Origin: Actinomycetota bacterium
GTDB lineage: Bacteria; Actinomycetota; CALGFH01
Assembly (NCBI GenBank): GCA_036280995.1
Contig: DASUPQ010000952.1
Span: 1-40,146 of the forward strand
Direction: 5' to 3'
Length of the DNA: 40,146 nucleotides
Each line of letters opens with the position of its first letter. Within the stretch, counting starts at the first letter, position 1. This document shows positions 1,229-32,996 of this stretch, piece after piece. The position numbers were made by a program, and so were the translations under genes. The notes below the pieces were generated by a model. That model did no database searches. It had not been told where the DNA came from and worked only from the letters and a program-made list of their open reading frames with translations.

Positions 1229-1876
1229 TCAGATGCCCACGACGGCCGAGCCGAGGTTGTCGGCGAACCGCCTCACCAGCCGGGCAGGGATCGTTCCCCC
1301 GAGGACGTCCATGATCGTTCCGGTGCTCACCGGGTTCCGGTCCGGGCACTCGGGATTGACGTACTCGTCCGCGTTCCCGAGCATGTGCCCGAACTCGTGG
1401 GCGGCGACGTCCCCGCCGTCTGTGGTGTGCCAGGTCGTCATGTTCGTCTGGCCAGGGCCCCTGCGGACCCGCACCGTGTGGTGCTCGCCGCTGGTGACCC
1501 AGAGGACCTCGAAGGCCAGCGGGCAGGTGAGCTCGCCCTGGCGGCCGCATCCGTGCCGGTCGTTCCAGCTGCTCTCGATCCCGTCCCGCCAGGTACTCCG
1601 CAGTGTGTTCATCTCGGCGGTGGAGATGCCGGCGTCGGGGACCAGGCGGATGCGGACCCGGATGTGGGTCCAGGTCTGCTCGAAGGCCGCGGTCCATCCG
1701 TAGATGCACTCGCTCCGCTCGATGGAGTGCTGCTTGCGGGCCAGGGACTCCAGCCTGGTCCGGAGCGAGACCGAGCTCGGGATGGGAGGCCCGGGGAAGA
1801 TGTCGTCCTTCACCGAGTAGGCGCCGGCCACCCCGCCGTACTTCCGGGCGACGCCCTCGAGGCTGAGGTCCCTCAC
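1229..1876 (-). CDS. putative zinc metalloprotease (HEFGH, metzincin-like)
   Basis: This encodes 215 residues from a GTG at 1876. HEFGHMLGNADEY at residues 160-172 supplies the HExxH zinc ligands H160 and H164 and the general base E161. The following G-N-x-D-E probably gives the third ligand (D170 or E171). TGTIMDV around residue 189 looks like the Met-turn that supports the zinc site in metzincins. There are four cysteines in the middle (C57, C110, C118, C177), and no signal peptide or membrane segment, so export by a classical route is not supported. The GTG overlaps the upstream gene's stop (GTGA), which implies translational coupling. The short length suggests a bare catalytic domain. The substrate is unknown; the neighbouring beta-repeat protein is a possible partner. 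Confidence 0.8.
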   Translation of the reverse strand: MRDLSLEGVARKYGGVAGAYSVKDDIFPGPPIPSSVSLRTRLESLARKQHSIERSECIYGWTAAFEQTWTHIRVRIRLVPDAGISTAEMNTLRSTWRDGIESSWNDRHGCGRQGELTCPLAFEVLWVTSGEHHTVRVRRGPGQTNMTTWHTTDGGDVAAHEFGHMLGNADEYVNPECPDRNPVSTGTIMDVLGGTIPARLVRRFADNLGSAVVGI

Positions 1877-2337: not shown

Positions 2338-2458
2338 TGGCGCACCTACTTTCCCGGACTTACCGTCGTCGTAGTGCGCGGATCGCTACCCTGTGGGGTA
2401 TTGAGCACGCCCGGCCCAACCGTGGTCAAGGGGAAGCTTCGAGCGGCGACACCCCAGG

Positions 2459-2640
2459 CTGGAGCTGCCCCGCGGCCCCAACAAGGAGCCGGCCAGCATC
2501 ATCGCCGCCCAGCTCCGCCATGCCGGCGGCGGCGCCCTCGCCCAGCGGGTCTACATCCACCAGCTCTCCCAGACCGCATCCCGGGTGGCCGGGCTGATCG
2601 AGGGCGTGTTCGGCCCGGCAGCGCGGGATGGGCGGGCGGT
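2459..2640 (+). pseudogene. tyrosine recombinase (integrase) C-terminal remnant, copy 1
   Basis: A short plus-strand frame reads PASIIAAQLRHAGGG, then ALAQRVYIHQL, then VAGLIEGVF. The L-R-H-A followed 10-12 residues later by Y-x-H fits the second conserved His and the catalytic Tyr (codon 2552-2554) at the C-terminus of tyrosine recombinases. The rest of the enzyme is absent to the left. The fragment points directly at the tRNA-Tyr-derived repeat at 2730-2777, as an integrase does beside its attachment site. A homologous fragment lies beside the real tRNA gene at 10079-10260. Confidence 0.6.
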
Positions 2641-2729
2641 GTCGGCGGCGCGTCGGGTGGAGGGAAACCGGAGCGTCGAACCCGGCCTGATCGGACGGCC
2701 AGTAGCGGCAGTTTCGCGCTCAGAGGGGT

Positions 2730-2777
2730 TGTGGCAGGGACAGGATTCGAACCTGTGTAGGCAATGCCGGCGATTTT
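2730..2777 (-). repeat. attachment-site copy: duplicated 3' half of tRNA-Tyr
   Basis: These 48 bp are identical to 10331-10378, which spans the discriminator base, T arm, variable arm and 3' side of the anticodon stem of tRNA-Tyr. Identity stops within the anticodon region: the next base here is g where the real gene has a, and the rest diverges. A duplicated 3' tRNA half is the classic footprint of site-specific integration. The copies are 7,601 bp apart and in the same orientation. Confidence 0.85.
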
Positions 2778-2849
2778 GCAGGTCGCACCGCCGTCACCCC
2801 GCCGGTCCCGTCCCATCCCTACCTGTTCTCGACAATAGCTTGTGACGTG

Positions 2850-3267
2850 CATAAGCAGCCTGTCGACAATCTCCGCCGTGCCTCGGCGTCCCTGCTTGTT
2901 CCACCCCGTCCCGCGCGGCCCAGCGTCGGGCGGAGGGAAGGCGGAGGGAAATCTCCGTCGACGCCTGATCGAGCTCCGTACCGACGAGGGCAGCGGGCTG
3001 GCCCATGAATCACTCTCCCCCGCCCACATGGGACGCCCATCGGGCGGTCCGAACCTCCACCATCACGCTTGGGCCGACTGCCGCAGCACGCCGGTTCGTT
3101 TCTTGACCCGCTTGTGGTGCTGTCGGTGGCACGCGGATGCAACGCGCCCGCCGCAGGCTGGTCGACGGCCGCCCGCACGACCCGGTTGGGAATCAGTCGT
3201 GCTGATCGTCGTGATGGGGTGGGTGTTGGTGATCGCGGGAACCCTCACGGGGCTCATCGGCCGGCTG
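2850..3267. other. gene-poor stretch inside the island
   Basis: I see no supported gene. One plus-strand frame has a hydrophobic run near 3198-3290 (VLIVVMGWVLVIAGTLTGL) that could be one membrane helix of a decayed gene. It has no recognisable flanks and no clear start with a ribosome site. Confidence 0.4.
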
Positions 3268-3546
3268 TCAGCAGCCTGGCTGGCCGTAGTTCCCACAGCA
3301 GCCGGATCGGCTGCGGAGCTTCCTCCAGTTGTTCGCCAGCGCGAGCCGGGTCCTGGTGGGAAATGGCGCGTCGTAGGCGCTGAAGTTGGTGAAGAAGGCC
3401 TTTCCGGTTGACCGTGCCATGGTGATCGCGACCTTTCTCAACTGGGGGTCGACGCCGCGGGTGTTGTCGGCGGCATGGACCAGCGTGTTCCTGAGCAGCC
3501 CGGTTGCCGGCTGCCACCAAGACGGTACCCGTTCGCAGGATCGCAT
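3268..3546 (-). CDS. small conserved-looking protein with Cys-rich C-terminus
   Basis: This encodes 92 residues if it starts at the ATG at 3546; the frame is open to 3708, but the extra N-terminus looks random. The C-terminal 80 residues look truly coding: TGLLRNTLVHAADNTRG, DPQLRKVAITMARSTGKAFF, RLALANNWRKLRS, ending CCGNYGQPGC followed directly by the stop. The paired cysteines plus a last Cys suggest a metal or redox site. I have an impression of seeing similar tails in actinobacterial hypothetical proteins, but I cannot name the family. It lies alone in a transposon-littered stretch. It could be intact or the C-terminal part of a longer decayed gene. Confidence 0.5.
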   Translation of the reverse strand: MRSCERVPSWWQPATGLLRNTLVHAADNTRGVDPQLRKVAITMARSTGKAFFTNFSAYDAPFPTRTRLALANNWRKLRSRSGCCGNYGQPGC

Positions 3547-4190
3547 GGCCCCTACAGAACGTGTCGCCGGAAGCGGGCTGCGCCTGCTACGCCACTGCGG
3601 CGTCACGTGGCAGACTCCCCGGACCGCGAGACCGCGAGGTCGCTCACCGCGTTTGGTGGCGTCGAGCCGTCCAGGCCGTGACTGGTCGGGGTGCTGACAC
3701 CGTGGCACCCCGGGCAGTGCCGGATGGACGGCCTACAACGATAGGGCCATCCGCCCCTACCGGTCGGTGTTGTCGGGGTGCTTCTTGAAGCCGGATGAGG
3801 TTGTGAGCGATGGGGGGCCGCGGAGATGTGGCGGTCATCTGTGGAAGAGCGGCTATTGTTCGCCGGTGCCCGTCTGCTAGTCGCCTGCGTCGACGAGATC
3901 ACCACCTGCAGACGGCAGGACGTATGAGTGCGCAAAGAGGTCACATACACCGATCCTGGCCGCTCCGCTGGTTCGCTTGTGCGAGCGGCACCCGCGCCGC
4001 CGCAATGGATCGAACCCAGTCACCAGGTCCGTAGCCCACCCAGCACCCCTCCCCCACCTGTCCTTGCCACCCGTGGTGTCTCCGTCGGTCCCGCAGTCGA
4101 CGACAAACCGCGCACAGACGATCCGGGTTGCGCCAGCAGCCGGGCGGCTCCGGTGGCGGAGCGGGATGCCTTGCTTCCTGGGGGACCGCC
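3547..4190. other. gene-poor stretch inside the island
   Basis: Only short, overlapping, low-quality frames occur on both strands. The base composition looks less GC-rich than in the flanking operons. I see no recognisable domain, no tRNA and no clear repeat. It is probably decayed mobile DNA between the small protein at 3268-3546 and the transposase remnants that start at 4191. Confidence 0.4.
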
Positions 4191-4356
4191 TTAGCAGATG
4201 ACGTGGATCAGGCCGATCAGGGCGCCCTTGGCCTGATTCCAGACCGGGATCATCTCGGGTGTCGGCAGCAACTCCACCTGGCAGCGACGGCGCTTGAAGA
4301 GGGCAGCCGCCTCCGCTCACCTTGCAGAACATCAAGTAGAGCAGTCGTAGGGTCAT
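4191..4356 (-). pseudogene. transposase/integrase remnant (N-terminal scrap and an unrelated tail)
   Basis: The frame from the ATG at 4356 begins MTLRLLYLMFCKV, the typical opening of a widespread actinobacterial integrase-core transposase, but diverges after about 14 codons. A second frame then reads LFKRRRCQ followed by PTPEMIPVWNQAKGALIGL and ends at a TAA at 4191-4193. The LFKRRR start recalls IS6-family transposases, with less certainty. Neither frame holds a catalytic domain, so I read this as a junction of two deleted transposase genes. Confidence 0.45.
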
Positions 4357-4394
4357 GCAGCGATCATCGCGCGGCCCGGTGGCGTCTCCACGAA

Positions 4395-4604
4395 CTGGCA
4401 AGTTAGCGCCACAACCGACTTCCTGGCACCCACAGGTGCCCCGCTCAGCCTTCTACGCTTGGGCCTCCAGGCGCGAGCTGAGGCGTCACCGGCCGCGCGT
4501 GAGGGCCAGGTTGGTTGCCGATCCAAGCGATCCACGCCCACTCCCGCGGCGTCTACGGCGCACCACCCGTCACCGCCGAGCTCGGATCGGTGTCGGCTGG
4601 GTAA
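4395..4604 (+). pseudogene. IS3-family OrfB transposase fragment, frameshifted
   Basis: One plus-strand frame reads VPRSAFYAWASRRELRRHR, matching the helix-turn-helix entry of IS3 OrfB transposases (usually V-x-R-S-x-Y-Y-A-W). Around 4521 the reading must shift to continue with IQAIHAHSRGVYGAPPV, matching the conserved I-x-x-I-H-x-x-S-x-x-x-Y-G-x-P segment. It then stops at the TAA at 4602-4604. The DDE domain is missing, so this is a dead fragment. I see no terminal inverted repeats. Confidence 0.7.
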
Positions 4605-4676
4605 CGGTCGGCTTGCCCAGTGCCCCAGAGCCACGCTTGTCAGACCGCCTGCCAAGTGCTCACCGCCGAGTGCCCG

Positions 4677-6077
4677 CTACCAGCGGGTGTAGAAGAGGAC
4701 CTCGATGGCCACCGCCTGGGCGAGTAGGAGACCCGCGACCAGGGGCAGGCTGACGCGCCAGCGCAGCAGCTGGCGCACGGCCACCACCACTGCGAACGGG
4801 ACCAGGAACTGCCACATCCGCTCGACCTCGCCGCGGGTGTGGCCCCAGCAGGCGGCGGTGAGCAGGCTGGCCAGCGTGGCCGCCTCGAACGACCCCCAGG
4901 CCCGCTCCCGCGCGGCGTCGCGGAGCCGTACGACCAGGGCGGCGGCTAGCGGGAAGCCAAGGATGGCGGCGAACGCCACCAAGTCGGCGAAGGCCCACAC
5001 CCACCAGATGCGCTGCTGGGTGCCCGGCGCGGTGCTCCAGAAGCGCTGTACCGCCGGGACGGCTGCGACCACGTCGTAGCCGGTGGCGGACCACAGCGCC
5101 CCGGCCAGCCCGAGCACCACGGCCGTGGTGGCGGCCGCCCAGCGCAGCACCCAGCCCCAGCCGTCGGCGGCCCGGACGGCCAGGGCGCGCACGGCCAGGA
5201 ACGGCAGCACCAGGGCGGCCGCGAAGGTCAGCATCGAGGCCAGCCACAGCAGCACCCCGCCGGCCACCGTCCACCACCAGGAGCGGCGCCGCAGCCCCCG
5301 GTCGGCGGCCAGGGCGCCGCCGGCGAGCACCGGCGCCCACATCGCGTCGGCCGAGGTGGCCACGTACAGCACGGTGACCGGGGCCAGGGCCCAGCAGGCG
5401 ACCGCCCAGCGCTCCCCCACCTCGCCCAGCTCGTCGCGGGCCAGGCCGGCTACCACCAGCAGACCGAGGCAGCCGGCGACGACGGTGGCCAGCGCGGCCC
5501 CGTCTAGGCCGGGCCAGACCCGGTCGACCAGCACGTAGAACACGGTCGCGAAGGGCGGGTGCACGGCGGCGTAGTCGGGCAACGAGGATAGCCGGGCCGG
5601 GAACTCGCCGAGGAAGGTCGGGATCGGGCCCACCTGGTCGACCGCGTCCGGGTATTCGCCGATGAAGGCCAGCGGCGCCGCCCAGGCCGCCGGCCCGCCG
5701 GCCAGCGCGGCCACGGCCAGGGTGAGCACTAGGACGGCGGCCATCGAGCCGGCCAGCCGCAGTGCCCGCGGCGGCCCGCTCACCAGGGCGAGCCTGACCA
5801 GGCCGGCGGCGGCCAGCAGGGCCAGTGGCAGGGCGACCACGGTGGCCGGGCCGTCCAGCCCTGGCGACCAGAACAGGTAGGAGGGCCAGCTGTAGTACCA
5901 GGGCCAGCTCGGCACCGAGAACGGCACCCGGCCAAAGCCGCGCATGCTGAAGGTGCCGAGCACGCCGACGGTCACCAGGCAGGCCGCGGCGACGGCGGTG
6001 GCCGGCAGCAGCGGGCCGCGGGCGGCGCGTCGCGCCTGTCCGGCCGGGGCGGGAGGGCGGGTGTCGGACGGCTTCAC
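4677..6077 (-). CDS. polytopic membrane protein, probable GT-C glycosyltransferase
   Basis: This encodes 466 residues from a GTG at 6077. About 11-12 hydrophobic segments alternate with short loops. After the first helices, a long extracytoplasmic loop carries FIGEYPDAVDQVGPIP and DYAAVHPPFATVFY. Acidic residues in the first big loop and an H-P-P motif are usual for GT-C enzymes that use polyprenyl-phosphate sugars. GHTRGEVERMWQFLVPF near the C-terminus is the late conserved block of such mannosyltransferase-like proteins. The likely role is adding a sugar to a glycan, lipid or protein outside the membrane; donor and acceptor are unknown. The start overlaps the stop of a 24-codon ORF (GTGA), so translation may be coupled to it. 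It is the third full-length gene of a minus-strand glycosylation set. Confidence 0.75.
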   Translation of the reverse strand: MKPSDTRPPAPAGQARRAARGPLLPATAVAAACLVTVGVLGTFSMRGFGRVPFSVPSWPWYYSWPSYLFWSPGLDGPATVVALPLALLAAAGLVRLALVSGPPRALRLAGSMAAVLVLTLAVAALAGGPAAWAAPLAFIGEYPDAVDQVGPIPTFLGEFPARLSSLPDYAAVHPPFATVFYVLVDRVWPGLDGAALATVVAGCLGLLVVAGLARDELGEVGERWAVACWALAPVTVLYVATSADAMWAPVLAGGALAADRGLRRRSWWWTVAGGVLLWLASMLTFAAALVLPFLAVRALAVRAADGWGWVLRWAAATTAVVLGLAGALWSATGYDVVAAVPAVQRFWSTAPGTQQRIWWVWAFADLVAFAAILGFPLAAALVVRLRDAARERAWGSFEAATLASLLTAACWGHTRGEVERMWQFLVPFAVVVAVRQLLRWRVSLPLVAGLLLAQAVAIEVLFYTRW

Positions 6078-6148
6078 GATGCCAGTCGGACAGCTTCGGC
6101 GAGAGTGGCCGCTTCGTTGGGGACAGGTAGGAGCACAGACGGCTTCAC
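6074..6148 (-). CDS. 24-residue GT2-like ORF coupled to the GT-C gene
   Basis: The GTG at 6148 has a strong ribosome site (AAAGGAG at 6156-6162, 7 bases upstream). The peptide begins MKPSVLLPVPNEAATLAEAV, very like the N-terminus of family 2 glycosyltransferases (normally V-P-V-Y-N-E), and ends at a TGA that overlaps the next gene's GTG. The first 11 bases of both ORFs are identical (GTGAAGCCGTC). It is either the truncated start of a lost GT2 gene or a leader peptide now driving translation of the membrane protein. Confidence 0.5.
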   Translation of the reverse strand: MKPSVLLPVPNEAATLAEAVRLAS

Positions 6149-6155
6149 GAGGTCG

Positions 6156-6162
6156 CTCCTTT
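6156..6162 (-). promoter_or_regulatory. ribosome binding site of the 24-codon ORF
   Basis: AAAGGAG on the minus strand lies 7 bases before the GTG at 6148. The downstream GT-C gene has no comparable site of its own before 6077, so this is probably the main ribosome entry for both. Confidence 0.6.
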
Positions 6163-6403
6163 GAGCCGCTCGACCAGACAAACGCAAGACGTTAGCAGAC
6201 AGGGCCAAGAGGACCACTGCTTCATCGCTATCCAAAGAGGCGCGACTGCCGAGGGCAGGCGGCAACTGCTGCCTTCACGGTCTGGATGGCGTGGGCAGGC
6301 CGTTGCTCGCACAACCTACGCCCGAGCCGGCTTTGCGGTGGCCGCGCCGGTCGGCGAGGCGGCTACTCTTCAGAAAGGCGAACGGCGACCGGGTCATGGC
6401 CCG

Positions 6404-8077
6404 TCAGGTCCGTGCCGGGGCCGGCATGTGGACCACCGGGTCACGCCACAAATAGACCCCGTCGACCGGGGTAGGCGGCCGGCCCAGCAGGTCGGTCAGG
6501 AAGCACAGCATGGTCGCTTGGTGCTCCATCGGGCCGACGATGATCGTGTCCACGCCCCAACCGGCCAGGTTGGCTGCCAGCGCCCGGCGCCTGCCCCCGA
6601 CCAGCCGCGGCGCCGGCTGGCCCCGCTGGATCGCCCCGAACGCCCTGGTGGCCGAGTTGGGGTTGGAGTCGAAACGGGGCCGCCCATCGGGAGTTGGTCC
6701 GATAACGTAGCCGCCGGGCATGCGGAACCACATGCCGGCCTCGGCTTGCCAGGTCATCGCCTTGGCGGCCCGGCGGTTGGCGAAGGGCAGAACCAGGGCC
6801 ACACCCCCTTCCGGCAGCCGGCGCACGGCGCCGGTGGCGAAGAACGGTGGCGTGTCGGCCTTGCTGGCCGGGACCGGCCCGGCGGGCAGCAGGGGGGCCA
6901 GGGCCGCCACGGCCACAGCGACCGCGGCCAGCCGCCGCCAGCCGCCGCCCTTCCAGACCGCGTCCAGGAACACGGCGAGCAGCAGCCCGGCGAACAGCGC
7001 CGTGTACATCGCCAACCGGCTCGGGATCAGGCTGGCGATCACCGGCAGTTGGTGGAACGGCGCCCAGGGCAGTCCGATCGTGGTCGCCCGCCCGCCCACA
7101 TGGAGATATGGGCCCATGGAGAAGACCGCCGCAAGCAGGACCATCACCGCCCCGACCCGCACCACTGGTCGGCGCCACCACCGGACGACCAGCGCGACCA
7201 GCACAAGCAGGAGCGGCACGCCCAGATAGGCGGCGTTGCCGCCGGCGAACTGGCGGACCTGTTCGGCGCTGCGCTGGGAGGAGAGGAGCTGAGGGGAGCC
7301 GGGGGTCACGTAGCCAAGCAGGTCGTTGGAGTAGTTGGTCTTGGTGATGTCGCCCTCGATGCGCTGCGGGCCGGCGAACTGGACTGAGAGCGGCTTGGCG
7401 GCGATCGCGCCGCCGACCACCGCGGCCAGCGCGAAGGCGAGCAGCGCGTGTACCACCCGGCGCCACTCCAAGCTCGCCCTCGGGTTGGTCGCCACGAGCA
7501 CCAGCAAGAGCAGCACCCCGAACAGAACGGTCGCGGCCAGCAGCTCCTCGCCGATGAGGAGCTGGCAGCCGGCCATCAGCCCGAGGAGCGGCCCGACCAG
7601 CCAGGGCGGGCGGCGCTGGCGGACCAGGATCTCGTCAACCGCGAGCAGCATCAATGGGACCAGGAAGGCGAACGAGATGTGCGGGTGGTTGCTCTGGCCC
7701 AGCATCACCGGGGAAAACCCGAAGACCAAACCGCCGACGGCCGCGGCCAGGTGCCCAGAAACGTAGCGCCGGATCGCCAGGTAGGCTGCCCAGGCCGAGA
7801 GCCCGTTGGCCAGCACGAGCACCACGTTGAAGGTCAGCACCGGCCCCCACCGCGACGTCAGCGGCGAGAGCAGGTACCCGAGCAGCGGCAGCGAGGCGTT
7901 CCACATCAGGTTGACGCCGCCCGGGATGTTCAGGTGGTCGCTGAAGAGGAGCTGGCGGCCGTGGTTGACGGCGAAGGGGATCCAGCGCAGGAACCAGATG
8001 ATGATGGCCGCGTCGCCGTCGGCGCCCCCCACCGTGGTTGTGGTCGGTGACGACCAGGCCGGAGCGTACCGCAGCAT
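6404..8077 (-). CDS. large polytopic membrane protein, GT-C-like
   Basis: This encodes 557 residues from the first ordinary start in frame (ATG at 8077). Many hydrophobic helices follow GADGDAAIIIWFLRWIPFAV and DHLNIPGGVNLMWN, an early loop with acidic residues and an N-P-G-G-V pattern seen in actinobacterial GT-C or YfhO-like membrane proteins. A soluble C-terminal part of about 140 residues follows the last helix (GGVALVLPFANRR, GWGVDTIIVGP). The frame stays open and hydrophobic upstream of the ATG (WPPPLFLLAFLGLA) with no ATG, GTG or TTG. The true start may be a CTG near 8131, or the first helix may come from a frameshifted start. It lies between the GT2-methyltransferase gene and the second GT-C gene and probably works with them in glycan synthesis. 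Confidence 0.65.
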   Translation of the reverse strand: MLRYAPAWSSPTTTTVGGADGDAAIIIWFLRWIPFAVNHGRQLLFSDHLNIPGGVNLMWNASLPLLGYLLSPLTSRWGPVLTFNVVLVLANGLSAWAAYLAIRRYVSGHLAAAVGGLVFGFSPVMLGQSNHPHISFAFLVPLMLLAVDEILVRQRRPPWLVGPLLGLMAGCQLLIGEELLAATVLFGVLLLLVLVATNPRASLEWRRVVHALLAFALAAVVGGAIAAKPLSVQFAGPQRIEGDITKTNYSNDLLGYVTPGSPQLLSSQRSAEQVRQFAGGNAAYLGVPLLLVLVALVVRWWRRPVVRVGAVMVLLAAVFSMGPYLHVGGRATTIGLPWAPFHQLPVIASLIPSRLAMYTALFAGLLLAVFLDAVWKGGGWRRLAAVAVAVAALAPLLPAGPVPASKADTPPFFATGAVRRLPEGGVALVLPFANRRAAKAMTWQAEAGMWFRMPGGYVIGPTPDGRPRFDSNPNSATRAFGAIQRGQPAPRLVGGRRRALAANLAGWGVDTIIVGPMEHQATMLCFLTDLLGRPPTPVDGVYLWRDPVVHMPAPART

Positions 8078-8211
8078 CGCCAGCCCGAGGAAGGCCAGCA
8101 GAAACAGCGGCGGCGGCCACGCGGTGCGCAGTCGGTTGAGAAGGGTCGGAGAGGTTCGAGATGTCGGTGCGTGCGCCGACGCGGTGGCTTCCTGGGCGAC
8201 CTTTGCTGGGT

Positions 8212-9675
8212 CTATTGTTCCGGCACCCTTGCAACGCAGATCACCGACTGGCCGAAGGGGGGGTCAAATCGCCGCTCGGAGACGCGGACCAGCGGCACGA
8301 TGACCCGGTCGTACAGCTTGACCAGCGTGGGCGTTGGCCGGCCCCTGCCACCCATTCGCACCGCCGCCCACCACGCCAACCCGCCTAGCAGGTTCACGGG
8401 CTTGAGCATCGTCACTTGGAGCCCTGCAGCCTCGACGGCTTGGCGGAGCATCTCAGGGGTATAGCGACGAACATGGCCGACGGCACGGTCGAACTCGCCG
8501 TACAGCGACGGATAGCCTGGCACGAGCAGGACCACGTTGCCGCCTGCGGCCACTGTCGAACCCATGGCTTTCAGGGCACGCACGTCCTCCTCAAGGTGTT
8601 CGAGAACGTTGATGGCGACGACCGAGTCCACCGGCGGATCGACCTTCACCTCCCCGAGGAGGTCGAGAGCTCGCACCTCGACCTCGGGCCGGCTGCTGAG
8701 CCGAGCGCGGAGCGACCACAGGCAGAAGGGATCGCTGTCGGTCACCACCAGCCGCTTTCGCCCGGTCAGCTGAGCCGTGAAGTCCCCAAGACCGGCGCCA
8801 ACCTCAAGCACCGAATCGCCGAGGTGGGGCTCGATCAAGCCGAAAAGGTAGCGGCGGTAGCGGACTGCCTCGCTGAGGTCCTCCAGACCGAGGGTATGGA
8901 TCGTGCCCCTACTGCCTTCGGCCGCGTCGAGTGCTCCAGCGGCGTCGGGGGCCAGCGGCGACAACGGCCCGACCGCTTTGGGCGCAGACCGGAACCGATA
9001 GCGGAGCACTGCGCCCGCGGCCCGCAAGCCGTCGCTGAAGTGGAGCTGCTTGCCTTGGCTGTAGGTGCGGGCCCGGTAGGAGATCGGCACCTCGTAAATG
9101 ACCAAGCCCTTGCGCCAGAAATGCGCGGTGAGTTCCATCTCGACGGTAAAGGTCTTCGCTGTTAGCGTGAGCCCTTCCAACGCTTTGCGGGTGAAGACTT
9201 TGTAGCCGGTATACACATCCGACAGATAGCGGTTGAACAGCACATTGACGGTCACATTCAGCAGACGGTTAGCCATCCGGTGTGTGTAGGACAGCCCCGC
9301 AGCGCTGCCCTTGAAGCGCGAGCCGTAGACGACCTCGAACTCCCCGTCGAGGATCGGCTGGATGAGCGCAGGCAGCTCGGCCGGGTCGTACTCAAGGTCG
9401 GCGTCCTGGATGCAAAGGATGTCGCCGGTGGCCGCCTCCAGCCCGGTCCTGACCGCCGCTCCCTTGCCCTGGTTACGCTCGTGCACGATCAGCTGGATGT
9501 CGTCGCGGGGTGGCGGGTTGAGCAGGTAGCGGCCGACGTCGGTCGAACCGTCGTCGACGAAGATCAGCTCGGTCTCCACACCCAAGGCCGCGAAGTCCAC
9601 GGCGAGCAGGCGCTGGATCACCGTCGGGAGGGCACGCAGCTCGTTGTGGAACGGTACGACGACCGACAACCTCAC
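8212..9675 (-). CDS. glycosyltransferase family 2 - SAM methyltransferase fusion
   Basis: This encodes 487 residues from a GTG at 9675. Residues 1-230 form a Dpm1-like GT2 domain: SVVVPFHNE at the start, the nucleotide-binding FVDDGSTD with D41-D42, GKGAAVRTG, and DADLEYDP at 91-98 as the metal-binding DxD. Such domains usually pass a sugar from a nucleotide donor to a polyprenyl phosphate. No C-terminal membrane helices follow. After a linker, residues 270-487 form a class I methyltransferase with motif I VLEVGAGLGDF (289-299), acidic VVTDSD (310-315) and VVAINVLEHL. The pair could make and methylate a lipid-linked sugar, or act separately on one product. It is the first gene of the glycosylation set; its acceptor is unknown. 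Confidence 0.85.
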   Translation of the reverse strand: MRLSVVVPFHNELRALPTVIQRLLAVDFAALGVETELIFVDDGSTDVGRYLLNPPPRDDIQLIVHERNQGKGAAVRTGLEAATGDILCIQDADLEYDPAELPALIQPILDGEFEVVYGSRFKGSAAGLSYTHRMANRLLNVTVNVLFNRYLSDVYTGYKVFTRKALEGLTLTAKTFTVEMELTAHFWRKGLVIYEVPISYRARTYSQGKQLHFSDGLRAAGAVLRYRFRSAPKAVGPLSPLAPDAAGALDAAEGSRGTIHTLGLEDLSEAVRYRRYLFGLIEPHLGDSVLEVGAGLGDFTAQLTGRKRLVVTDSDPFCLWSLRARLSSRPEVEVRALDLLGEVKVDPPVDSVVAINVLEHLEEDVRALKAMGSTVAAGGNVVLLVPGYPSLYGEFDRAVGHVRRYTPEMLRQAVEAAGLQVTMLKPVNLLGGLAWWAAVRMGGRGRPTPTLVKLYDRVIVPLVRVSERRFDPPFGQSVICVARVPEQ

Positions 9676-10078
9676 CCCACGAGCCTTTCCCCGTATAATG
9701 GCAAAATCGGGCGTAGGATATCACTTGCGCAGAGCAGGCTCTGGCCGCATCAGGCCAACCGCTATCCTGCTCGACAATGAACGGCTCTTCCGGCGCGACC
9801 GCCGCGGCGATCGACGCCGCGCCGTCCCGACGCGCCGAGCTGGCCGACGGCGAGCATCCGAGCAGCGCCCTGGCCCGGTGGAGACTGAACGTGGTCGCCC
9901 ATCTTGCTGGCCGAGGATGGCCTGACCGCGCACGCACTGCGCGGCATCGTGACCGGCCTGTGCTACGGCGAGCGGTCGCGCACGTGGCATCTGTGGCTAG
10001 ACGGCCGGACGTCCTCGCAACTCGGCGGCATCAATCGCCCGCCGCCGCACCTCCTCGCGGGGGACCTCGACCCATGGC
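9676..10078. other. promoter region of the glycosylation set and decayed DNA
   Basis: This 403-bp stretch holds no intact gene. Just upstream of the GTG at 9675 is an AT-richer patch (about 9690-9720, with TTGCCATTATAC on the minus strand) that could hold the promoter of the glycosylation set. Beyond it, plus-strand frames continue toward the integrase remnant at 10079 and may be older recombinase sequence. None matches a domain I know. Confidence 0.35.
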
Positions 10079-10260
10079 AGCCAACAAACTACCGGCCAGC
10101 ATCATCGCGCCCAACTGCGCCACGCCGACGGCGGCGCGCTCGCCCAACGGGTGTACATCCACCAGCTGCCCCAGACCGCGCCCCGCTTGGCTGGGGTGAT
10201 CGAAGCAGTGTTCGCCCCGAAGCGCATGCTGGGCGGGCGGTATCGGCTGGGCGTCGGGCG
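10079..10260 (+). pseudogene. tyrosine recombinase (integrase) C-terminal remnant, copy 2
   Basis: This is homologous to 2459-2640 at the DNA level but with one base lost after PASIIA (gcgccc here, gccgccc in copy 1). The protein therefore shifts frame before QLRHADGGALAQRVYIHQLPQ. The catalytic Tyr codon would be 10154-10156. VIEAVFAPK follows, then the similarity fades some 70 bases before the tRNA-Tyr repeat at 10331. The frameshift and missing N-terminal domains make it inactive. Confidence 0.6.
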
Positions 10261-10330
10261 GAGGGAAGCCAGCCTTCGAGCCCGACTTGACTGGGCGGCC
10301 CGCAACCGTATTGCTGCTGGTCAGGGGCTA

Positions 10331-10378
10331 TGTGGCAGGGACAGGATTCGAACCTGTGTAGGCAATGCCGGCGATTTT
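10331..10378 (-). repeat. attachment-site copy within tRNA-Tyr
   Basis: This is the 48-bp partner of 2730-2777. It covers the 3' half of the functional tRNA-Tyr plus two flanking bases. The tRNA 3' end points left, so an element integrated here would occupy the sequence to the left, as observed. Confidence 0.85.
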
Positions 10379-10414
10379 ACAGACCGCTCCCTTTGGCCGC
10401 TCGGGCACCCTGCC
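10333..10414 (-). tRNA. tRNA-Tyr (GTA anticodon)
   Basis: This is 82 nt with a long variable arm (class II). The acceptor GGCAGGG pairs with CCCTGCC, followed by discriminator A; CCA is not encoded. The D arm contains GAGCGGCCAAAGGGAGC, the anticodon loop reads CTGTAAAA with anticodon GTA, and the T loop is GGTTCGAATCC. All elements needed for charging and decoding of UAU/UAC are intact, although the gene served as an integration site. Confidence 0.95.
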
Positions 10415-10427
10415 GGACCGAGGGCGG

Positions 10428-10457
10428 ATGATACCGGCCCCCGGAGCGTCCCAACAA
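10428..10457 (-). promoter_or_regulatory. probable tRNA-Tyr promoter
   Basis: On the minus strand, TTGTTG (10452-10457) and TATCAT (10428-10433) are separated by 18 bases, and the tRNA 5' end follows 13 bases later. The spacing fits a housekeeping sigma promoter in the short gap between the HATPase-like gene and the tRNA. Confidence 0.5.
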
Positions 10458-10468
10458 CCGGGTGGGGG

Positions 10469-10858
10469 TCAGGCTTCCAGCTCGAACCAGACCACATGGC
10501 CGGGGCGGTCCGGCTCGGGGGAGGAGTCCCAGACGAGGGCCAGGGTGTCGAACAGCTCGAGGCTGCGGCCGGCAACCGAGACCGGGCGGGCGCCGTCGCG
10601 GTCGAGCGGCAGCGGGGCGCCGCCGTCGTGGACCTCGACGTGGAGCACGTGGGGGCGGAAGGCGATGGTCACCTGGAAGGCGCGGACGGTCTCGCAGGCC
10701 TCGCTGTGCAGCAGCGGGTTGGTGATGGCCTCGTCGACCAGGAGCCGGGCCGCCTCGTAGAGCTCGGTGTCGCGCAGCAGGGTGGCGGCCACGAACCGCC
10801 GGGCGTCGGCCACGTCCTCGAAGCCGCCGGTGAACTGCCGCGAGAACCCCACACCCAC
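10469..10858 (-). CDS. HATPase-like (RsbW/anti-sigma type) regulatory protein
   Basis: This encodes 129 residues from a GTG at 10858. The fold order matches the short GHKL ATP-binding proteins of the RsbW/SpoIIAB type: helix AARLLVDEAITNPLLHS at the N-box, strand ALHVEV-like (VLHVEVHDGGAPLPL) at the G1 box, and ELFDTLALVWD near the C-terminal region. The N-box (DEAITNPLLHS) keeps the Asn but lacks the usual N-x-x-x-H-A pattern, and the G2 glycines are poor, so ATP binding may be weak or lost. Such proteins usually bind a sigma factor or anti-anti-sigma protein; no partner gene is adjacent. It is divergent from yajQ across 112 bp. Confidence 0.65.
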   Translation of the reverse strand: MGVGFSRQFTGGFEDVADARRFVAATLLRDTELYEAARLLVDEAITNPLLHSEACETVRAFQVTIAFRPHVLHVEVHDGGAPLPLDRDGARPVSVAGRSLELFDTLALVWDSSPEPDRPGHVVWFELEA

Positions 10859-10970
10859 CTCCCCTGAGCGAACGGAGTGGAACGACTACCCGGGTTTGTC
10901 CCCCATCAACCGCCCTGCGCGACCCGGCTGTCTGCTAGCGTCCCCGAGGATCTCGAGGAAGGAGGATGCC

Positions 10971-11459
10971 GTGGCCGACTCCTCGTTCGACGTCGTCGCC
11001 AAGGTCGACCGTCAGGAGGTCGACAACGCCGTCAACCAGGCAAGGAAGGAGCTGTCGCAGCGCTTCGACTTCAAGAACACCGGCACCTCGCTGGCCTGGG
11101 CGGGTGAGGGGGTGGTGATCGTCTCCAAGACCGACCAGCGGGCCCTGGCCGCTCTCGACGTGTTCAAGGAGAAGCTGGTGAAGCGGTCGGTGTCGCTCAA
11201 GGCGCTGACCTCCTCGGAGCCGCGGCCTGCGGGCGGCGGGACCTACCGGGTGGAGTGCTCGTTCCTCCAGGGCATCCCCGAGGACAAGGCCAAGGCGCTG
11301 GCCAAGACCATCCGCCAGTCCGGGCTCAAGGTGCAGGCCCAGGTCCAGGGCGACCAGCTGCGGGTCACGGGCAAGAGCAAGAACGACCTCCAGCAGGCGA
11401 TCGCCCTGCTCAAGGAGCGCGACGAGGGGCTGCCGCTGCGCTTCACCAACTATCGTTGA
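10971..11459 (+). CDS. yajQ: YajQ family nucleotide-binding protein
   Basis: This encodes 162 residues, the usual family length. The start is the GTG at 10971, placed by AAGGAGG five bases upstream and by the canonical opening ADSSFDVVAKVDRQEVDNAV; the open frame further upstream is not coding. Family hallmarks include RFDFKNT, KRSVSLKAL, KTIRQSGLKVQAQVQGDQLRVTGKSKNDLQQAIALL and the C-terminal LRFTNYR. YajQ proteins bind nucleotides; in Xanthomonas a member is a cyclic-di-GMP effector that acts through a transcription factor. The role in actinobacteria is not established. It is a single-gene unit ahead of the DGPF-ECF42 operon. Confidence 0.95.
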   Translation: MADSSFDVVAKVDRQEVDNAVNQARKELSQRFDFKNTGTSLAWAGEGVVIVSKTDQRALAALDVFKEKLVKRSVSLKALTSSEPRPAGGGTYRVECSFLQGIPEDKAKALAKTIRQSGLKVQAQVQGDQLRVTGKSKNDLQQAIALLKERDEGLPLRFTNYR

Positions 11460-11476
11460 GGGATCTGGCCGGGGGG

Positions 11477-11503
11477 TGTCGATTCCGACGCGGGCCGCTC
11501 GTC
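11477..11503 (+). promoter_or_regulatory. putative ECF42-type promoter
   Basis: TGTCGA at 11477-11482 and CGTC at 11500-11503 are separated by 17 bases and lie 50 bp before the DGPF gene start. I recall published ECF42 target promoters as TGTCGA at -35 and CGA/TC at -10. The match and position predict that the ECF42 sigma factor encoded downstream drives its own operon. Confidence 0.65.
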
Positions 11504-11553
11504 GGTTGCATAGAGGGCGGCGAACCGCGCCGCCCCGGTCCCGGGGAGGGAGC

Positions 11554-11913
11554 ATGCAGTACGCACTGCTGATCTACGCGAGCGAGCAGGAATGGGCCAG
11601 CCAGACCGAGGAGGAGTCCCAGGCCCAGTTCCAGGAGTACATGGCCTTCACCAAGGACATCGTAGACCGCGGCATCTACAAGGGCGGCGAGGCCCTGCAG
11701 CCGACCGCCACCGCGACCACCGTGCAGGTGCGCGACGGCGAGCGGCTAACCACCGACGGGCCGTTCGCCGAGACCAAGGAGCAGCTCGGCGGGTTCTACG
11801 TGGTCGAGGCCAAGGACCTGGACGAGGCGATCGAGATCGCGGCCAGGATCCCCGACGTCCGGCGCGGGTCGATCGAGGTCCGGCCGGTCATGGAGACGGG
11901 CATGCCGTCCTGA
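11554..11913 (+). CDS. DGPF/YCII-domain protein, partner of ECF42 sigma factor
   Basis: This encodes 119 residues from an ATG at 11554 preceded by GGGGAGGG. The start [14 protein letters not shown] and central [31 protein letters not shown] are diagnostic: DGPF is the motif that names the family, and the fold is the ferredoxin-like YCII type. [11 protein letters not shown] closes the domain. DGPF proteins are the conserved genomic partners of ECF42 sigma factors, which lies directly downstream here (16 bp). Their biochemical role is unknown. I would expect co-induction from the TGTCGA promoter upstream. Confidence 0.93.
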
Positions 11914-11929
11914 GGACGAGAATCCGGGG

Positions 11930-13174
11930 GTGAGGGTGGCCGAGGAGACCCGCGCGCTGGTCGAGCGGGTGTTCCGGGAGGAGTCAGGGCAGGCCGTGGC
12001 CACCCTCATCCGCCTCCTCGGCGACTTCGACCTGGCCGAGGAGGCCGTCCAGGAGGCCTTCCTGGTCGCCGTCGAGCGCTGGCCGGGCGGCGGCGTGCCC
12101 GACCGGCCCGGGGCCTGGATCACCACCACCGCCCGTAACAAGGCCATCGACCGGCTCCGCCGCGAGCGCGGCCTGGCCGAGCGCCGGGCCACCCTGGCCC
12201 TGCTCGAGGCCGACCGCGGCCAGGACAGCGAGATGCACACCATTGCCGACGACCGGCTGCGGCTGATCTTCACCTGCTGCCACCCGGCCCTCTCGCCCGA
12301 GGCCCGGGTCGCCCTCACCCTGCGCACCCTCGGGGGCCTCTCGACCCCCGAGATCGCCCGCGCCTTCCTGGTCCCGGAGGCGACCATGGCCCAGCGGCTG
12401 GTCCGGGCCAAGGGCAAGATCCGCGACGCCGCCATCCCCTACCGGGTGCCGCCCGACCACCTGCTGCCGGAGCGGCTCGGGTCGGTGCTGGCCGTGCTCT
12501 ACCTGATCTTCAACGAGGGGTACGCGGCCACCGCCGGCGACGCCCTGGTCCGCCGCGAGCTGTGCGCCGAGGCGCTGCGCCTCGGCCAGGTCCTGGCCGG
12601 GCTGATGCCCGACGAGGGCGAGGCCCTGGGGCTGCTGGCCCTGCTGCTGCTGCACGACGCCCGCCGCGAGGGGCGGGTCGGGCCGGGCGGCGAGCTGGTG
12701 CTGCTGGAGGACCAGGACCGGGCCCGCTGGGACAAGGCCAAGATCCACGAGGGGGTCGGCCTGCTCGACCGGGCGATCCGCCGCGGCCCGCCCGGGCCCT
12801 ACCAGCTCCAGGCCTGCATCGCCGCCCTGCACGCGGTCGCGCCGACGGCCGCGGCCACCGACTGGCGGCGCATCGCCGTCCTCTACGATCAGCTCATGGC
12901 GCTGAACCCCTCGCCGGTGGTCGCCCTCAACCGGGCGGTGGCGGTGGCCATGCGGGACGGCCCGGCGGCCGGCCTGGCCCTGATGGACGACCTGGCCGCG
13001 TCCGGCGACCTGGACGGCTACCACCTCCTCCACGCCGGCCGGGCCGACCTGCTGCGCCGCCTGGGCCGGGCCCCGGAGGCGGCGGCCGCCTACCGCCGGG
13101 CCCTGGAGCTGGCCGCCAACCCGGTCGAGCGGGCCTTCCTCACCCGCCGCCTGGCCGAGCTCGACCCGGCCTGA
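11930..13174 (+). CDS. ECF42-group RNA polymerase sigma factor with long C-terminal extension
   Basis: This encodes 414 residues from a GTG at 11930 (a second GTG at 11936 is possible). Sigma region 2 occupies residues 15-85 ([37 protein letters not shown]). Region 4 is at about 118-170 ([34 protein letters not shown]). The C-terminal 240 residues form the helical TPR-like extension typical of ECF42, with [30 protein letters not shown] and paired A-A-x-x-R-R-A-L-E-L repeats near the end. In this group the extension, not an anti-sigma factor, is reported to control activity. The DGPF gene upstream and the permease gene 4 bp downstream form one operon. Confidence 0.93.
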
Positions 13175-19737: not shown

Positions 19738-21210
19738 CTACGGACCCGCGAGCAGGGTCGAGACGGGGGCGTACTGGACCAGGAGGTTGGGGAGGACGCC
19801 GAGGACCAGGACGCCGGCCGCGGCCAGGACGACGGCGGCGCCGACGCCGGGAGCGACGGGCTGGAGGGCGGGTTCGGGGGCGCCCTCGGGTGGGCTGCCG
19901 AGCCAGAGGCTGCGGGCGACCCCGGCGTAGTAGAACAAGGCGACCACGGTCATGACGGCCATGAACACGACCAGCAGCTGCAGGGTCAGGGTGTCGCCGT
20001 TGATGGCCGATTTGAAGACCACGAACTTGGCGTACCAGCCGGCGGCCGGGGGGATGCCGGCCAGCGAGAAGAGGAACAGGGTCATGGCCGCCCCGAGGGC
20101 CGGGGCGCGGCGGGCCAGGCCGGCGTAGTCGGCGATCAGGTTGGACGGCTGGCGCTGGCTGACCAGGGTGACGACGGCGAATGCGCCCAGGTTGGTGAAG
20201 GCGTAGATCAGCAGATAGACGAGCACGGCCTGGAAGGCCTCCTCGCGGACCTCGGGGTTGGCCGAGGCGCCGGCCGCGAAGGGGACCAGCATGTAGCCGG
20301 CCTGGGCGACCGAGGAGTAGGCGAGCAGCCGGACCATGTTGGTCTGGGCCAGGGCGATGACGTTGCCGAGCAGCATGGTGAAGGCGGCCAGCACGGCGAA
20401 GGCCGGCGCCCAGTAGCGGGCGTAGGACGGGAAGGCCACGAACGTCACCTGGAGGAGGCCGGCGAACCCGGCCGCCTTGGAGGCGACCGACAGGTAGGCG
20501 GCCACCGGGACCGGGGAGCCCTCGTAGGTGTCGGGGGCCCAGAAGTGGAACGGGGCCGCCGACACCTTGAAGGCGAAGCCGGTGATGACCAGGAACACGC
20601 TCATCACGGCGGCCGGCTCGTCGCCCAGCTGGGCCAGGCGCTCGGCGATGGGGCCGAGCTGGAGCGAGCCGGTGAAGCCGTAGACCAGGCTCATGCCGAA
20701 CAGCATGACCGCGGTCGATAGGACCCCGATGAGCAGGAACTTGAGCGCGCCCTCGTTGCCGCGGGCGTCGCCTTTGCGGAAGCCGGCGGCGATGAAGCCG
20801 GTGGCCGAGACGATCTCGAGCGACAGGAACAGCATGAGGAGATCTCGCGAGGACGGCATCAGCAGCATGCCGACGAAGCTGGACAGGACCAGGAAGTAGA
20901 ACTCGCCCTGGTAGGCGGTGCCGGCGTCGACGTAGCGCTGGCTCATCAGCAGGACCAGCAGCAGCGAGCCCAGGAACAGGCCCTTGAACAGCAGGGCGTA
21001 GTTGTCGACCACGAACGACCCGCCGAAGGTGCTCCGCGTGCCCCCGCCGACCAGGCTGGCCAGGGCGACCCCGGCGGCCACGGTGCCGGCGATGGACAGC
21101 CAGCTGGCGACCACCTTGGCCCGCTCCACGAACAGGTCGACCACCAGCACCAGCAGGGCGGTGCCGGCCAGGACCAGCTCGGGAAGGATGGCGTGGAAGT
21201 CGATGGCCAC
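19738..21210 (-). CDS. nuoN: complex I subunit NuoN (EFG-less set)
   Basis: This encodes 490 residues from a GTG at 21210. It is a 14-helix antiporter-like proton pump subunit of NADH-quinone oxidoreductase-type complexes. FHFWAPDTYEGSPVPVAAYLSVASKAAGF carries the discontinuous helix and key Lys of the family, and LLAYSSVAQAGYML and ALAGIPPAAGWYAKFVVFK are further landmarks. It is the last gene of the A-B-C-D-H-I-J-K-L-M-N set. It is clearly diverged from the other NuoN at 31461-32981 (for example FHFWAPDTYEG here, FHMWTPDVYQG there), so the sets are not a recent duplication. The gap to the kinase gene downstream is 161 bp, with no obvious T-rich terminator. Confidence 0.95.
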   Translation of the reverse strand: MAIDFHAILPELVLAGTALLVLVVDLFVERAKVVASWLSIAGTVAAGVALASLVGGGTRSTFGGSFVVDNYALLFKGLFLGSLLLVLLMSQRYVDAGTAYQGEFYFLVLSSFVGMLLMPSSRDLLMLFLSLEIVSATGFIAAGFRKGDARGNEGALKFLLIGVLSTAVMLFGMSLVYGFTGSLQLGPIAERLAQLGDEPAAVMSVFLVITGFAFKVSAAPFHFWAPDTYEGSPVPVAAYLSVASKAAGFAGLLQVTFVAFPSYARYWAPAFAVLAAFTMLLGNVIALAQTNMVRLLAYSSVAQAGYMLVPFAAGASANPEVREEAFQAVLVYLLIYAFTNLGAFAVVTLVSQRQPSNLIADYAGLARRAPALGAAMTLFLFSLAGIPPAAGWYAKFVVFKSAINGDTLTLQLLVVFMAVMTVVALFYYAGVARSLWLGSPPEGAPEPALQPVAPGVGAAVVLAAAGVLVLGVLPNLLVQYAPVSTLLAGP

Positions 21211-21226
21211 GGTCAGGGTCTCCTCG

Positions 21227-22774
21227 TCATGCGAACAGTTCCGTGAACCAGCCGGTGACCGACGGGTCGGCCAGCCACAGGACCAGGCCGGGGGCGAACC
21301 CGAGGGCCACCGTGAGCACGATCAGGGGCGACCAGGCGGCGATCTCGATGGGGGCGATGTCGCCAAGGGTGCCGCCCTCCCAGCGGTCGGGGACCCGGCC
21401 GAGGTTGATCCGCTGGATCAGCCAGAGGAAGTAGCCGGCGGTCAGCAGCGTCCCCACCAGGCCGACCAGGGCCAGGCTGCGGAACAGCGGCACCGACAGG
21501 CCCGGGGCCGGGTTCCAGGCGGCCAGCAGGGCCAGGATCTCCCCCCAGAAGCCGGCCAGCCCGGGCAGGCCGAGGGAGGCGATGCAGGCCAGGGTGAACA
21601 CCCCGGCCAGCCGGGGCATGAGGGTGGCCATGCCGCCGCCCAGCTCGACGATGTCGCGGGTGTGGTAGCGCTCGTGCATGGAGCCGGCCAGGAAGAACAG
21701 CATCCCGGTGATGACGCCGTGGGCGACCATGCCGAACACGGCGGCGTTGATCCCGGTCGGGGTGAGGGTGGCGATGCCCAGCATGACGAAGCCCATATGG
21801 CCGACCGAGGAGAAGGCGATCAGCCGCTTGACGTCCCGCTGGGCCAGGCAGCACAGGGCGCCGTAGATGATGGCGATCGCACCGAGCACCCCGATCGCCG
21901 GGGCCCAGGTCCGGGCGGCCTCGGGCAGGATCGGCAGGGCGATGCGCACGAACCCGTAGGTGCCCATCTTCAGCAGGATCCCGGCCAGCAGCACCGACCC
22001 GACCGTTGGGGCCTCGGTGTGGGCGTCGGGCAGCCAGGTGTGCAGCGGCCACACCGGCACCTTGACGGCGAAGCCGAGGGCGACGGCGGCGAACACGATC
22101 GTCCCGAAGGTCCCGCCGAAGCGGGCCGCCCCCAGCTCCTGGAGGGCGAGGATGTCGAAGGTGCGGCCGGCGGCCTCGGGGCTGGAGCGGAGCCACAGGG
22201 CCAGGAACCCCAGCAGCATGACCACCGACCCGATGAGGGTGTAGAGGATGAACTTGATCGAGGCGTACTCGCGCCTGGCCCCGCCCCAGACGGCGATCAG
22301 GAAGTACATGGGGATCAGGACCGTCTCCCAGAAGACGAAGAACAGCACCAGGTCGAGGGCGGCGAAGGTGCCGTTCATGCCCGTCTCGAGCAGCAGCAGC
22401 AGGGCCAGGAAGGCCTTGGGGTTGCGCGGCTCGGGCAGGATCCGCCACGAGTAGACGACGCACAGCAGGCTGAGCAGCAGCGACAGCACCAGCAGGGGCA
22501 GGGCGATGCCGTCGACGCCGACGTGGTAGCCGGCCCCGATCGCCGGGATCCAGTCCCGGGACACCTCGAACTGCATGGCCGCCCCCGCCTCGTAGTCGAA
22601 GCGGGCCAGCATGCCCACCCCGACGAGCAGGGCGAGTGCGGAGAAGCTGAGCGCCGCCCCCCGGATCAGGCCGTCCCGCTCCCGGGGGAGCACGGCGACG
22701 GCGACCGCGCCGAGCAGGGGAAGGAACACGGCCAGGGTCAGGGCCGAGTCGTCGAACCAGTCCATGCCGAGCAC
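21227..22774 (-). CDS. nuoM: complex I subunit NuoM (EFG-less set)
   Basis: This encodes 515 residues. It is a membrane antiporter-like subunit with FFVFWETVLIPMYFLI (the essential Glu in helix 5), VPVWPLHTWLPDAHTEAPTVGSVLLAGILLKMGTYG (Lys and helix 7-8 break), and LIAFSSVGHMGFVMLG. The length is normal. It pumps protons in the distal arm. It lies 12 bp downstream of nuoL and 16 bp upstream of nuoN, so translation is tightly packed. Confidence 0.95.
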   Translation of the reverse strand: MLGMDWFDDSALTLAVFLPLLGAVAVAVLPRERDGLIRGAALSFSALALLVGVGMLARFDYEAGAAMQFEVSRDWIPAIGAGYHVGVDGIALPLLVLSLLLSLLCVVYSWRILPEPRNPKAFLALLLLLETGMNGTFAALDLVLFFVFWETVLIPMYFLIAVWGGARREYASIKFILYTLIGSVVMLLGFLALWLRSSPEAAGRTFDILALQELGAARFGGTFGTIVFAAVALGFAVKVPVWPLHTWLPDAHTEAPTVGSVLLAGILLKMGTYGFVRIALPILPEAARTWAPAIGVLGAIAIIYGALCCLAQRDVKRLIAFSSVGHMGFVMLGIATLTPTGINAAVFGMVAHGVITGMLFFLAGSMHERYHTRDIVELGGGMATLMPRLAGVFTLACIASLGLPGLAGFWGEILALLAAWNPAPGLSVPLFRSLALVGLVGTLLTAGYFLWLIQRINLGRVPDRWEGGTLGDIAPIEIAAWSPLIVLTVALGFAPGLVLWLADPSVTGWFTELFA

Positions 22775-22786
22775 GCCTCCTTCCGG

Positions 22787-24682: not shown

Positions 24683-24700
24683 CTACGCTCTCCTCTCAGG

Positions 24701-25006
24701 TCACCAGCGCAGCAGGTCGACCTCGTCGATGTTGACCGTCTCCCGGTTGCGGAAGATCAGCAGCACGATGGCCAGGCCGATGCCGACCTCGGCGGCGGCC
24801 ACGGCGATCACGAACAGCGCGAACACCTGGCCGGAGACGAGCTGGTCGCGCAGGTAGGCGTTGAACGCGACCAGGTTGACGTTGACCGCGTTCAGCATCA
24901 GCTCGATGCTCATCAGCACCATCACCGCGTTGCGGCGGGCCAGCACGCCGTACACCCCGGCGCTGAACAGGAAGGCGGCGAACACCAGCGGGTACATCAG
25001 CGGCAT
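24701..25006 (-). CDS. nuoK: complex I subunit NuoK (EFG-less set)
   Basis: This encodes 101 residues, the standard length, with three membrane helices. Both conserved glutamates of the proton path are present: [14 protein letters not shown] in helix 2 and [17 protein letters not shown] in helix 3. The tail [10 protein letters not shown] is usual. Retention of both acids argues that this complex still couples electron flow to proton movement. Confidence 0.95.
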
Positions 25007-25025
25007 TGCTGGCTCTCCTCGGTTG

Positions 25026-25520
25026 TCAGTCGCGGCGGGCGAGGACGATGGCGCCGACCAGGGCGGCCAGCAGCAGGACGCTGACCGCCTCGAAGGGCAG
25101 CACGTAGTTCCGGAACAGCGATTCGCCGAGGGCCTCGGTGGCGGTGGCGGCCTGGTTGGCGATGCGCTTGTCGCCGAAGGCGCCGGCCAGGAAGACCGTG
25201 AACATGATGAACACGGCGGCCCCGACCACGAAGGCGCCGACCCGGGCCCGCAGGGTGTTGTCGAGCACCCGGCGGCCCACGGGGGCCCTGGTCAGCATGA
25301 TGCCGAACAGGATCAGGACCACGATCGCGCCCACGTAGATGATGACCTGCACGAAGGCCACGAACGGGGCGGCCAGGAGCAGGTACACGCCGGCCACGCT
25401 GGCCAGGGCGACGACCAGGTACAGGGCGGCGTGGACGACGTTGCGGCTGGTCACCACCAGCAGCCCGGCCAGGCCGCCGACCACGGCCAGGATCAGGAAC
25501 GCGACCTCCTGCCCGTTCAC
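25026..25520 (-). CDS. nuoJ: complex I subunit NuoJ (EFG-less set)
   Basis: This encodes 164 residues from a GTG at 25520 that overlaps the nuoI stop (GTGA). Five helices are present. [55 protein letters not shown] contains the pi-bulge helix 3 region (YVGAI) that changes shape during turnover. It is shorter at the C-terminus than NuoJ of the other set (180 residues). Confidence 0.95.
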
Positions 25521-32981: not shown

Positions 32982-32996
32982 GTGGCTCCTCCGGGG

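What the first reader, a model, noticed from the sequence alone, without database searches (positions are those of the whole stretch)
2730..10414. Tandem accretion at tRNA-Tyr: duplicated 3' half with an integrase remnant beside each copy
The 3' half of tRNA-Tyr is duplicated exactly for 48 bp, 7,601 bp apart and in the same orientation. Each copy is preceded by a homologous tyrosine-recombinase C-terminus; the second carries a one-base deletion. Integration into tRNA 3' halves is well known. Two decayed, related integrase ends in series imply two successive integrations, with the glycosylation genes as cargo of the inner element and the metalloprotease operon in the outer one.
Basis: partly seen in the sequence, partly recalled or inferred. 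Interest (0 to 1): 0.6.

Follow-up and report, generated by a model that had tools for sequence, protein, structure and literature searches.

The report
Decayed tandem islands at tRNA-Tyr
Two related mobile DNA islands inserted one after the other into the end of the same tRNA-Tyr gene of an uncultured actinobacterium, leaving an intact tRNA, a second copy of its 3' half, two broken integrase ends and the integrase's likely binding sites; this is a clear example of a well-known process in a poorly sampled lineage.

Summary
The 3' half of tRNA-Tyr (48 bp, exact) occurs twice, 7,601 bp apart. Each copy follows a homologous 250-bp stretch encoding the last ~45 residues of a tyrosine recombinase; the second copy is frameshifted. 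Only 10332-10414 is a real tRNA; the other copy is a displaced fragment, which ARAGORN miscalls as tRNA-Cys.

Best reading: two related islands inserted in series at tRNA-Tyr. Island A, between the copies, carries three glycosylation-type genes. Island B lies beyond 2730; its far end is off the contig.

New evidence: (i) a ~165-bp arm beyond the displaced fragment is conserved next to tRNA-Tyr halves on two contigs of a related genome; (ii) the 15-mer GTCGGGYGGAGSGAA occurs only five times in three related genomes (~16.5 Mb), always beside these halves, like an arm-type integrase site; (iii) within each genome the tRNA half and its best copy share the host's own variants; (iv) both relatives' tRNA contigs end at the tRNA 3' end.

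Tandem islands at tRNA genes are well documented: a new member of a known kind. Not shown: an empty site, B's far end, and B's ownership of the metalloprotease genes. Both integrase remnants start at the same base, unexplained.

The parts
10332..10414 (-). intact tRNA-Tyr (GTA), the target gene; its 3' half (10331-10378) is supplied by the island
   Evidence: ARAGORN, Rfam RF00005 E 2e-9; flank 10331-13162 is syntenic at 90% with G001
2730..2777 (-). displaced 3' half of tRNA-Tyr, junction between islands A and B; identity stops inside the anticodon loop
   Evidence: 48/48 identity to 10331-10378; no Rfam tRNA match
10081..10330 (+). island A, integrase side: frameshifted C-terminus of a tyrosine recombinase plus P-arm DNA
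2478..2729 (+). island B, integrase side: C-terminus of a tyrosine recombinase (open frame, N-terminal part and HxLRH box missing) plus P-arm DNA
2778..2955 (+). other arm (P') of island A, conserved beside tRNA-Tyr halves on G002 contigs C27 and C269
   Evidence: 75-82% identity
2652..2666 (+). arm-type integrase-site candidate, 78 bp before the tRNA half
   Evidence: GTCGGGTGGAGGGAA
2925..2951 (+). arm-type integrase-site candidate, double copy (GTCGGGCGGAGGGAA-GGCGGAGGGAAA), 148 bp after the tRNA half
10253..10267 (+). arm-type integrase-site candidate, 78 bp before the tRNA half
   Evidence: GTCGGGCGGAGGGAA
8212..9675 (-). island A cargo: GT2 polyprenyl-phosphate-sugar-type glycosyltransferase fused to a methyltransferase
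   Evidence: PF00535 E 7e-28, PF13489 E 2e-9; AglJ-like below cut-off
6404..8077 (-). island A cargo: multi-pass membrane protein, probably a GT-C-type glycosyltransferase (inferred)
   Evidence: 8 TM-like segments; no family over cut-off; paralogues at 71-73%
4677..6077 (-). island A cargo: multi-pass membrane protein, probably a GT-C-type glycosyltransferase (inferred)
   Evidence: 9 TM-like segments; no family hit; paralogues at 70-71%
1229..1876 (-). possible island B cargo: HEXXH (HEFGH) metalloprotease-like protein; membership of B not shown
   Evidence: M6-domain NCBIfam E 2e-5, below cut-off; motif read

Best explanation
Two related integrative islands entered the 3' half of the single tRNA-Tyr gene found here, one after the other, by tyrosine-recombinase site-specific recombination. 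Each circular island carried attP = [integrase 3' end, ~110 bp, tRNA-Tyr 3' half, ~180-bp arm] with repeated arm-type integrase sites on both sides of the core. Recombination in the anticodon loop rebuilds a working tRNA from the host 5' half and the island's 3' half, and pushes a spare 3' half to the far end. Reading leftward from the tRNA gives: tRNA-Tyr, island A (integrase end, three glycosylation-type genes, P' arm), displaced tRNA half, island B (integrase end, then DNA with a metalloprotease-like gene and the contig end). Both integrases have since decayed to their C-termini, so the islands can no longer move by themselves. Shown: the repeat, the tRNA, the recombinase identity, the conserved arm and the site-specific 15-mer. 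Inferred: the two events, the crossover point, the role of the 15-mer and loss of mobility.
For: Exact 48-bp tRNA half inside an 80%-identical block. The halves are identical while the flanks are 196/248 identical, P about 1e-5 under equal divergence; the displaced half is not a functional tRNA, so selection on tRNA function cannot have kept it identical. The fragments are tyrosine-recombinase C-termini. Homologous integrases elsewhere in the phylum have the same geometry, gene end ~100 bp from a convergent tRNA 3' end (L122, L129, L132, L135 at tRNA-Arg; L130 at tRNA-Phe); here the gap is 110 and 112 bp. The ~165-bp arm beyond the displaced half is conserved on G002 contigs C27 and C269, both beside tRNA-Tyr halves. 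The 15-mer GTCGGGYGGAGSGAA occurs 5 times in ~16.5 Mb of three genomes, all at these halves, with constant spacing (78 bp before; 148, 148, ~142 bp after, the last counting a one-mismatch copy). In G002 the tRNA and contig C27 share 51 exact bases including two bases that differ from G000. In G001 and G002 the tRNA-Tyr contigs stop within 4 bp of the tRNA 3' end. Mycobacteriophages Dori and Mask carry a tRNA-Tyr-like 3' half 40 bp after their integrase gene.
Against: No empty or singly occupied site was seen, because relatives' contigs stop at the tRNA. The far end of island B and a third tRNA half were not found. Both integrase remnants begin at the same position (2478/10081), which two independent truncations do not predict. 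The genome is a 959-contig assembly, and a mis-join at a 48-bp repeat cannot be excluded without reads.
Confidence: 0.85

Rival explanations
1. Islands A and B (and those of G002) were already non-autonomous when they inserted: they shared a ~480-bp attP cassette with an integrase truncated at the same base and were moved by an integrase acting in trans.
For: Both window remnants start at the same point (2478/10081), with no HxLRH box or other integrase sequence upstream (no PF00589 hit in this contig). The C27 copy appears to start near the same point, and the arm homology ends just after the arm repeat in the G002 copies.
Against: Differences between the two remnants are concentrated at third codon positions (5, 3, 13; P 0.007), as if the protein was still under selection while they diverged; this bias is absent after the C-terminus. 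C27 is too decayed to fix its start. No complete trans-acting integrase of this subfamily was found in the genome.
Confidence: 0.15
2. A single island, with a later segmental duplication of its integrase end and tRNA half.
For: One 310-bp block is duplicated in direct orientation.
Against: The flanks differ by 20% while the tRNA half is identical, so the copies did not diverge uniformly from one duplication. The displaced copy has its own P' arm, which is absent at the tRNA and conserved in another genus.
Confidence: 0.06
3. Assembly artefact: unrelated contigs joined at the 48-bp repeat.
For: Fragmented assembly (959 contigs); relatives' contigs break at this repeat.
Against: Any permutation of joins at the repeat still needs two integrase-plus-tRNA-half units and one P' arm in this genome; the same unit exists independently in G002.
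Confidence: 0.05

Closest known systems
Tandem tRNA-borne genomic islands (Islander arrays; PMC4383910)
   Same: intact tRNA plus displaced 3' fragment(s) with an integrase gene for each; the paper's table counts 125 tandems of two or more
   Different: both integrase genes are decayed and the outer end is missing
Actinomycete integrative and conjugative elements in tandem, e.g. Fean5518/Fean5534 at tRNA-Lys in Frankia (PMC3218068)
   Same: actinobacterial, tRNA 3' end, two closely related integrases in series
   Different: no replication or transfer genes were recognised between the halves here; the target is tRNA-Tyr
Cis-mobilizable elements formed by tandem accretion (PMC5704250; Dehalococcoides ssrA islands, PMC3146451)
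   Same: att-flanked islands without working integrase stacked at one RNA gene
   Different: mobility in cis is not tested; Dehalococcoides uses a serine recombinase at ssrA
Mycobacteriophage attP sites with paired arm-type repeats (PMC3203893); phages Dori and Mask with a tRNA-Tyr-like attP
   Same: short repeats on both sides of a core; int gene end next to the core in Dori and Mask
   Different: no phage structural gene was recognised in the island; the integrase C-terminus of Dori is only distantly similar

Membership tests
tRNA-targeted integrative genomic island | intact tRNA at one end and a displaced fragment of it at the other, same orientation | tested here: met
tRNA-targeted integrative genomic island | integrase gene beside the att site | tested here: met
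   met only as a decayed C-terminal remnant
tRNA-targeted integrative genomic island | sporadic: relatives with an empty or differently filled site | tested here: inconclusive
   cargo orthologues at genus-level identity absent from G001 and G002, but both contigs stop at the tRNA
tandem island array | each member has its own tRNA fragment and integrase | tested here: inconclusive
   two integrase remnants and two tRNA halves are present, but the third fragment expected at B's far end was not found
actinomycete integrative and conjugative element | replication initiator and FtsK-like transfer genes | tested here: inconclusive
   the larger ORFs between the halves match neither; small ORFs in 2956-4660 were not scanned, and B is incomplete
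cis-mobilizable element | no integration or transfer genes but functional att sites that recombine when an integrase is supplied | not testable with these tools
   needs an excision assay

The most novel reading that the evidence does not exclude
This family carries a group of non-autonomous islands that share a ~480-bp attP cassette (truncated integrase end, tRNA-Tyr half, two sets of arm sites), swap cargo around it, and are moved by an integrase encoded elsewhere.
Probability: 0.15. Interest if true: 0.45.

Novelty: new member of a known kind. Interest (0 to 1): 0.25.

Why it matters
It documents stacked islands at tRNA-Tyr in a poorly sampled actinobacterial lineage. It gives a usable marker (tRNA half plus the GTCGGGYGGAGSGAA arm repeat) for finding related islands, and shows glycosylation-type genes as island cargo. 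It does not change how island integration is understood.

Tried and rejected
ARAGORN's tRNA-Cys at 2731-2812 was rejected as a real tRNA. Direct Pfam and PHROGs scans of the short fragments gave nothing, and a first generic integrase profile failed to score them. Searches of plasmids, phages, viral contigs and 85,000 genomes with the fragment or the tRNA half found only the family genome G001, the phage attP of Dori and Mask, and weak chance matches. G000:C833, sharing a gene with the G002 contig C269, has no att remnant. G000:C745 is a chance match with no tRNA. The SNF2-helicase flank of C269 is absent from G000 and G001, so it could not locate the original downstream flank.

Full report
What is there. 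The window is contig C952 of a 6.07-Mb, 959-contig actinobacterial genome. The genome set held here has one genome of the same genus (G001, CALGFH01) and one of the same family (G002); the next nearest are only of the same phylum. tRNA-Tyr lies at 10332-10414 on the minus strand, near yajQ (gene named from its translation; no family search was run on it), and is the only tRNA that Rfam accepts in 2400-10500. Its 3' half, 48 bp, is repeated exactly at 2730-2777.

The repeat is part of a larger homologous block, 2478-2789 and 10081-10390, 80% identical. The plus-strand part before each tRNA half encodes '...PASIIAAQLRHAGGGALAQRVYIHQLSQTASRVAGLIEGVFG' and a frameshifted relative. A profile of 27 independent integrase C-termini puts these two frames first and second of 743. 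The C-terminus of a PF00589 integrase on G002 contig C322 finds exactly these two places in the window genome. Several of its homologues sit with their 3' ends about 100 bp from a convergent tRNA 3' end, as both remnants do here (110 and 112 bp).

Attachment-site anatomy. Beyond the displaced half, 2778-2955 is conserved at 75-82% on G002 contigs C27 and C269, in both cases directly beside a tRNA-Tyr half; on C27 a decayed integrase end lies on the other side. The 15-mer GTCGGGYGGAGSGAA occurs five times in the three genomes, all at these sites. It lies 78 bp before the tRNA half at both window copies and about 142-148 bp after it in the window, C269 and (with one mismatch) C27. Short repeats on both sides of a core are what arm-type integrase sites look like in mycobacteriophages (PMC3203893). 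That role is inferred here.

How it arose. Integration into a tRNA gene leaves a rebuilt tRNA and a displaced fragment at the two island ends (PMC4383910). Identity between the halves ends inside the anticodon loop, so the crossover was probably there. The halves are identical although the flanking DNA differs by 20% (P about 1e-5), and within each genome they share the host's variants: in G002 the tRNA and C27 share 51 exact bases. This argues for separate insertions of two related islands after the genera split, and against one old segmental duplication. An integrase end outside the displaced half means that a second island, B, adjoins island A. Whether A or B came first cannot be told.

Cargo. 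Between the halves are a GT2 glycosyltransferase-methyltransferase fusion and two multi-pass membrane proteins. Each has 70-75% relatives on other contigs of this genome and G001, but no copy at the ~90% expected of an orthologue in G001. The metalloprotease-like genes at 411-2337 lie on B's side and have no substantial DNA match in G001 or G002. The contig starts at base 1, so their membership of B is open.

Limits. In both relatives the tRNA-Tyr contig stops within 4 bp of the tRNA end. That fits a repeat there, but gives no empty site. Both integrase remnants begin at the same base (2478/10081), unexplained by independent decay; a shared truncated cassette would explain it, but third-position bias between the remnants (13 of 21 changes, P 0.007) suggests that they diverged while still coding.

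Comparison. Tandem islands are known: Islander lists 125 tandems of two or more, Frankia and Streptomyces avermitilis have tandem elements at tRNA-Lys and tRNA-Arg (PMC3218068), and accretion with decayed elements is described in PMC5704250 and PMC3146451. This is a new member of that kind.

Noticed in passing
2731-2812: ARAGORN reports a tRNA-Cys (GCA) that is really a tRNA-Tyr fragment plus island DNA; it would be a false tRNA in automatic annotation.
   Followed up: yes
L066 (G000:C408) 1181-2865 and L157 (G001:C414) 4387-6064: Paralogues of the membrane protein at 6404-8077 sit close to a tRNA-Gly (CCC) gene in both genomes, possibly another island site.
   Followed up: no
window 20284-25096 and 32004-36854: Two long blocks are 65-73% alike in direct orientation, suggesting a duplicated gene cluster.
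   Followed up: no
L043 (G002:C269) 3084-3576: The P' arm runs into a mycothiol-maleylpyruvate-isomerase-like gene that looks truncated at its start compared with G000:C833.
   Followed up: partly
2956-4660: About 1.7 kb beside the P' arm was not assigned a gene; apart from short matches it has no relatives in the family genomes and looks decayed.
   Followed up: partly
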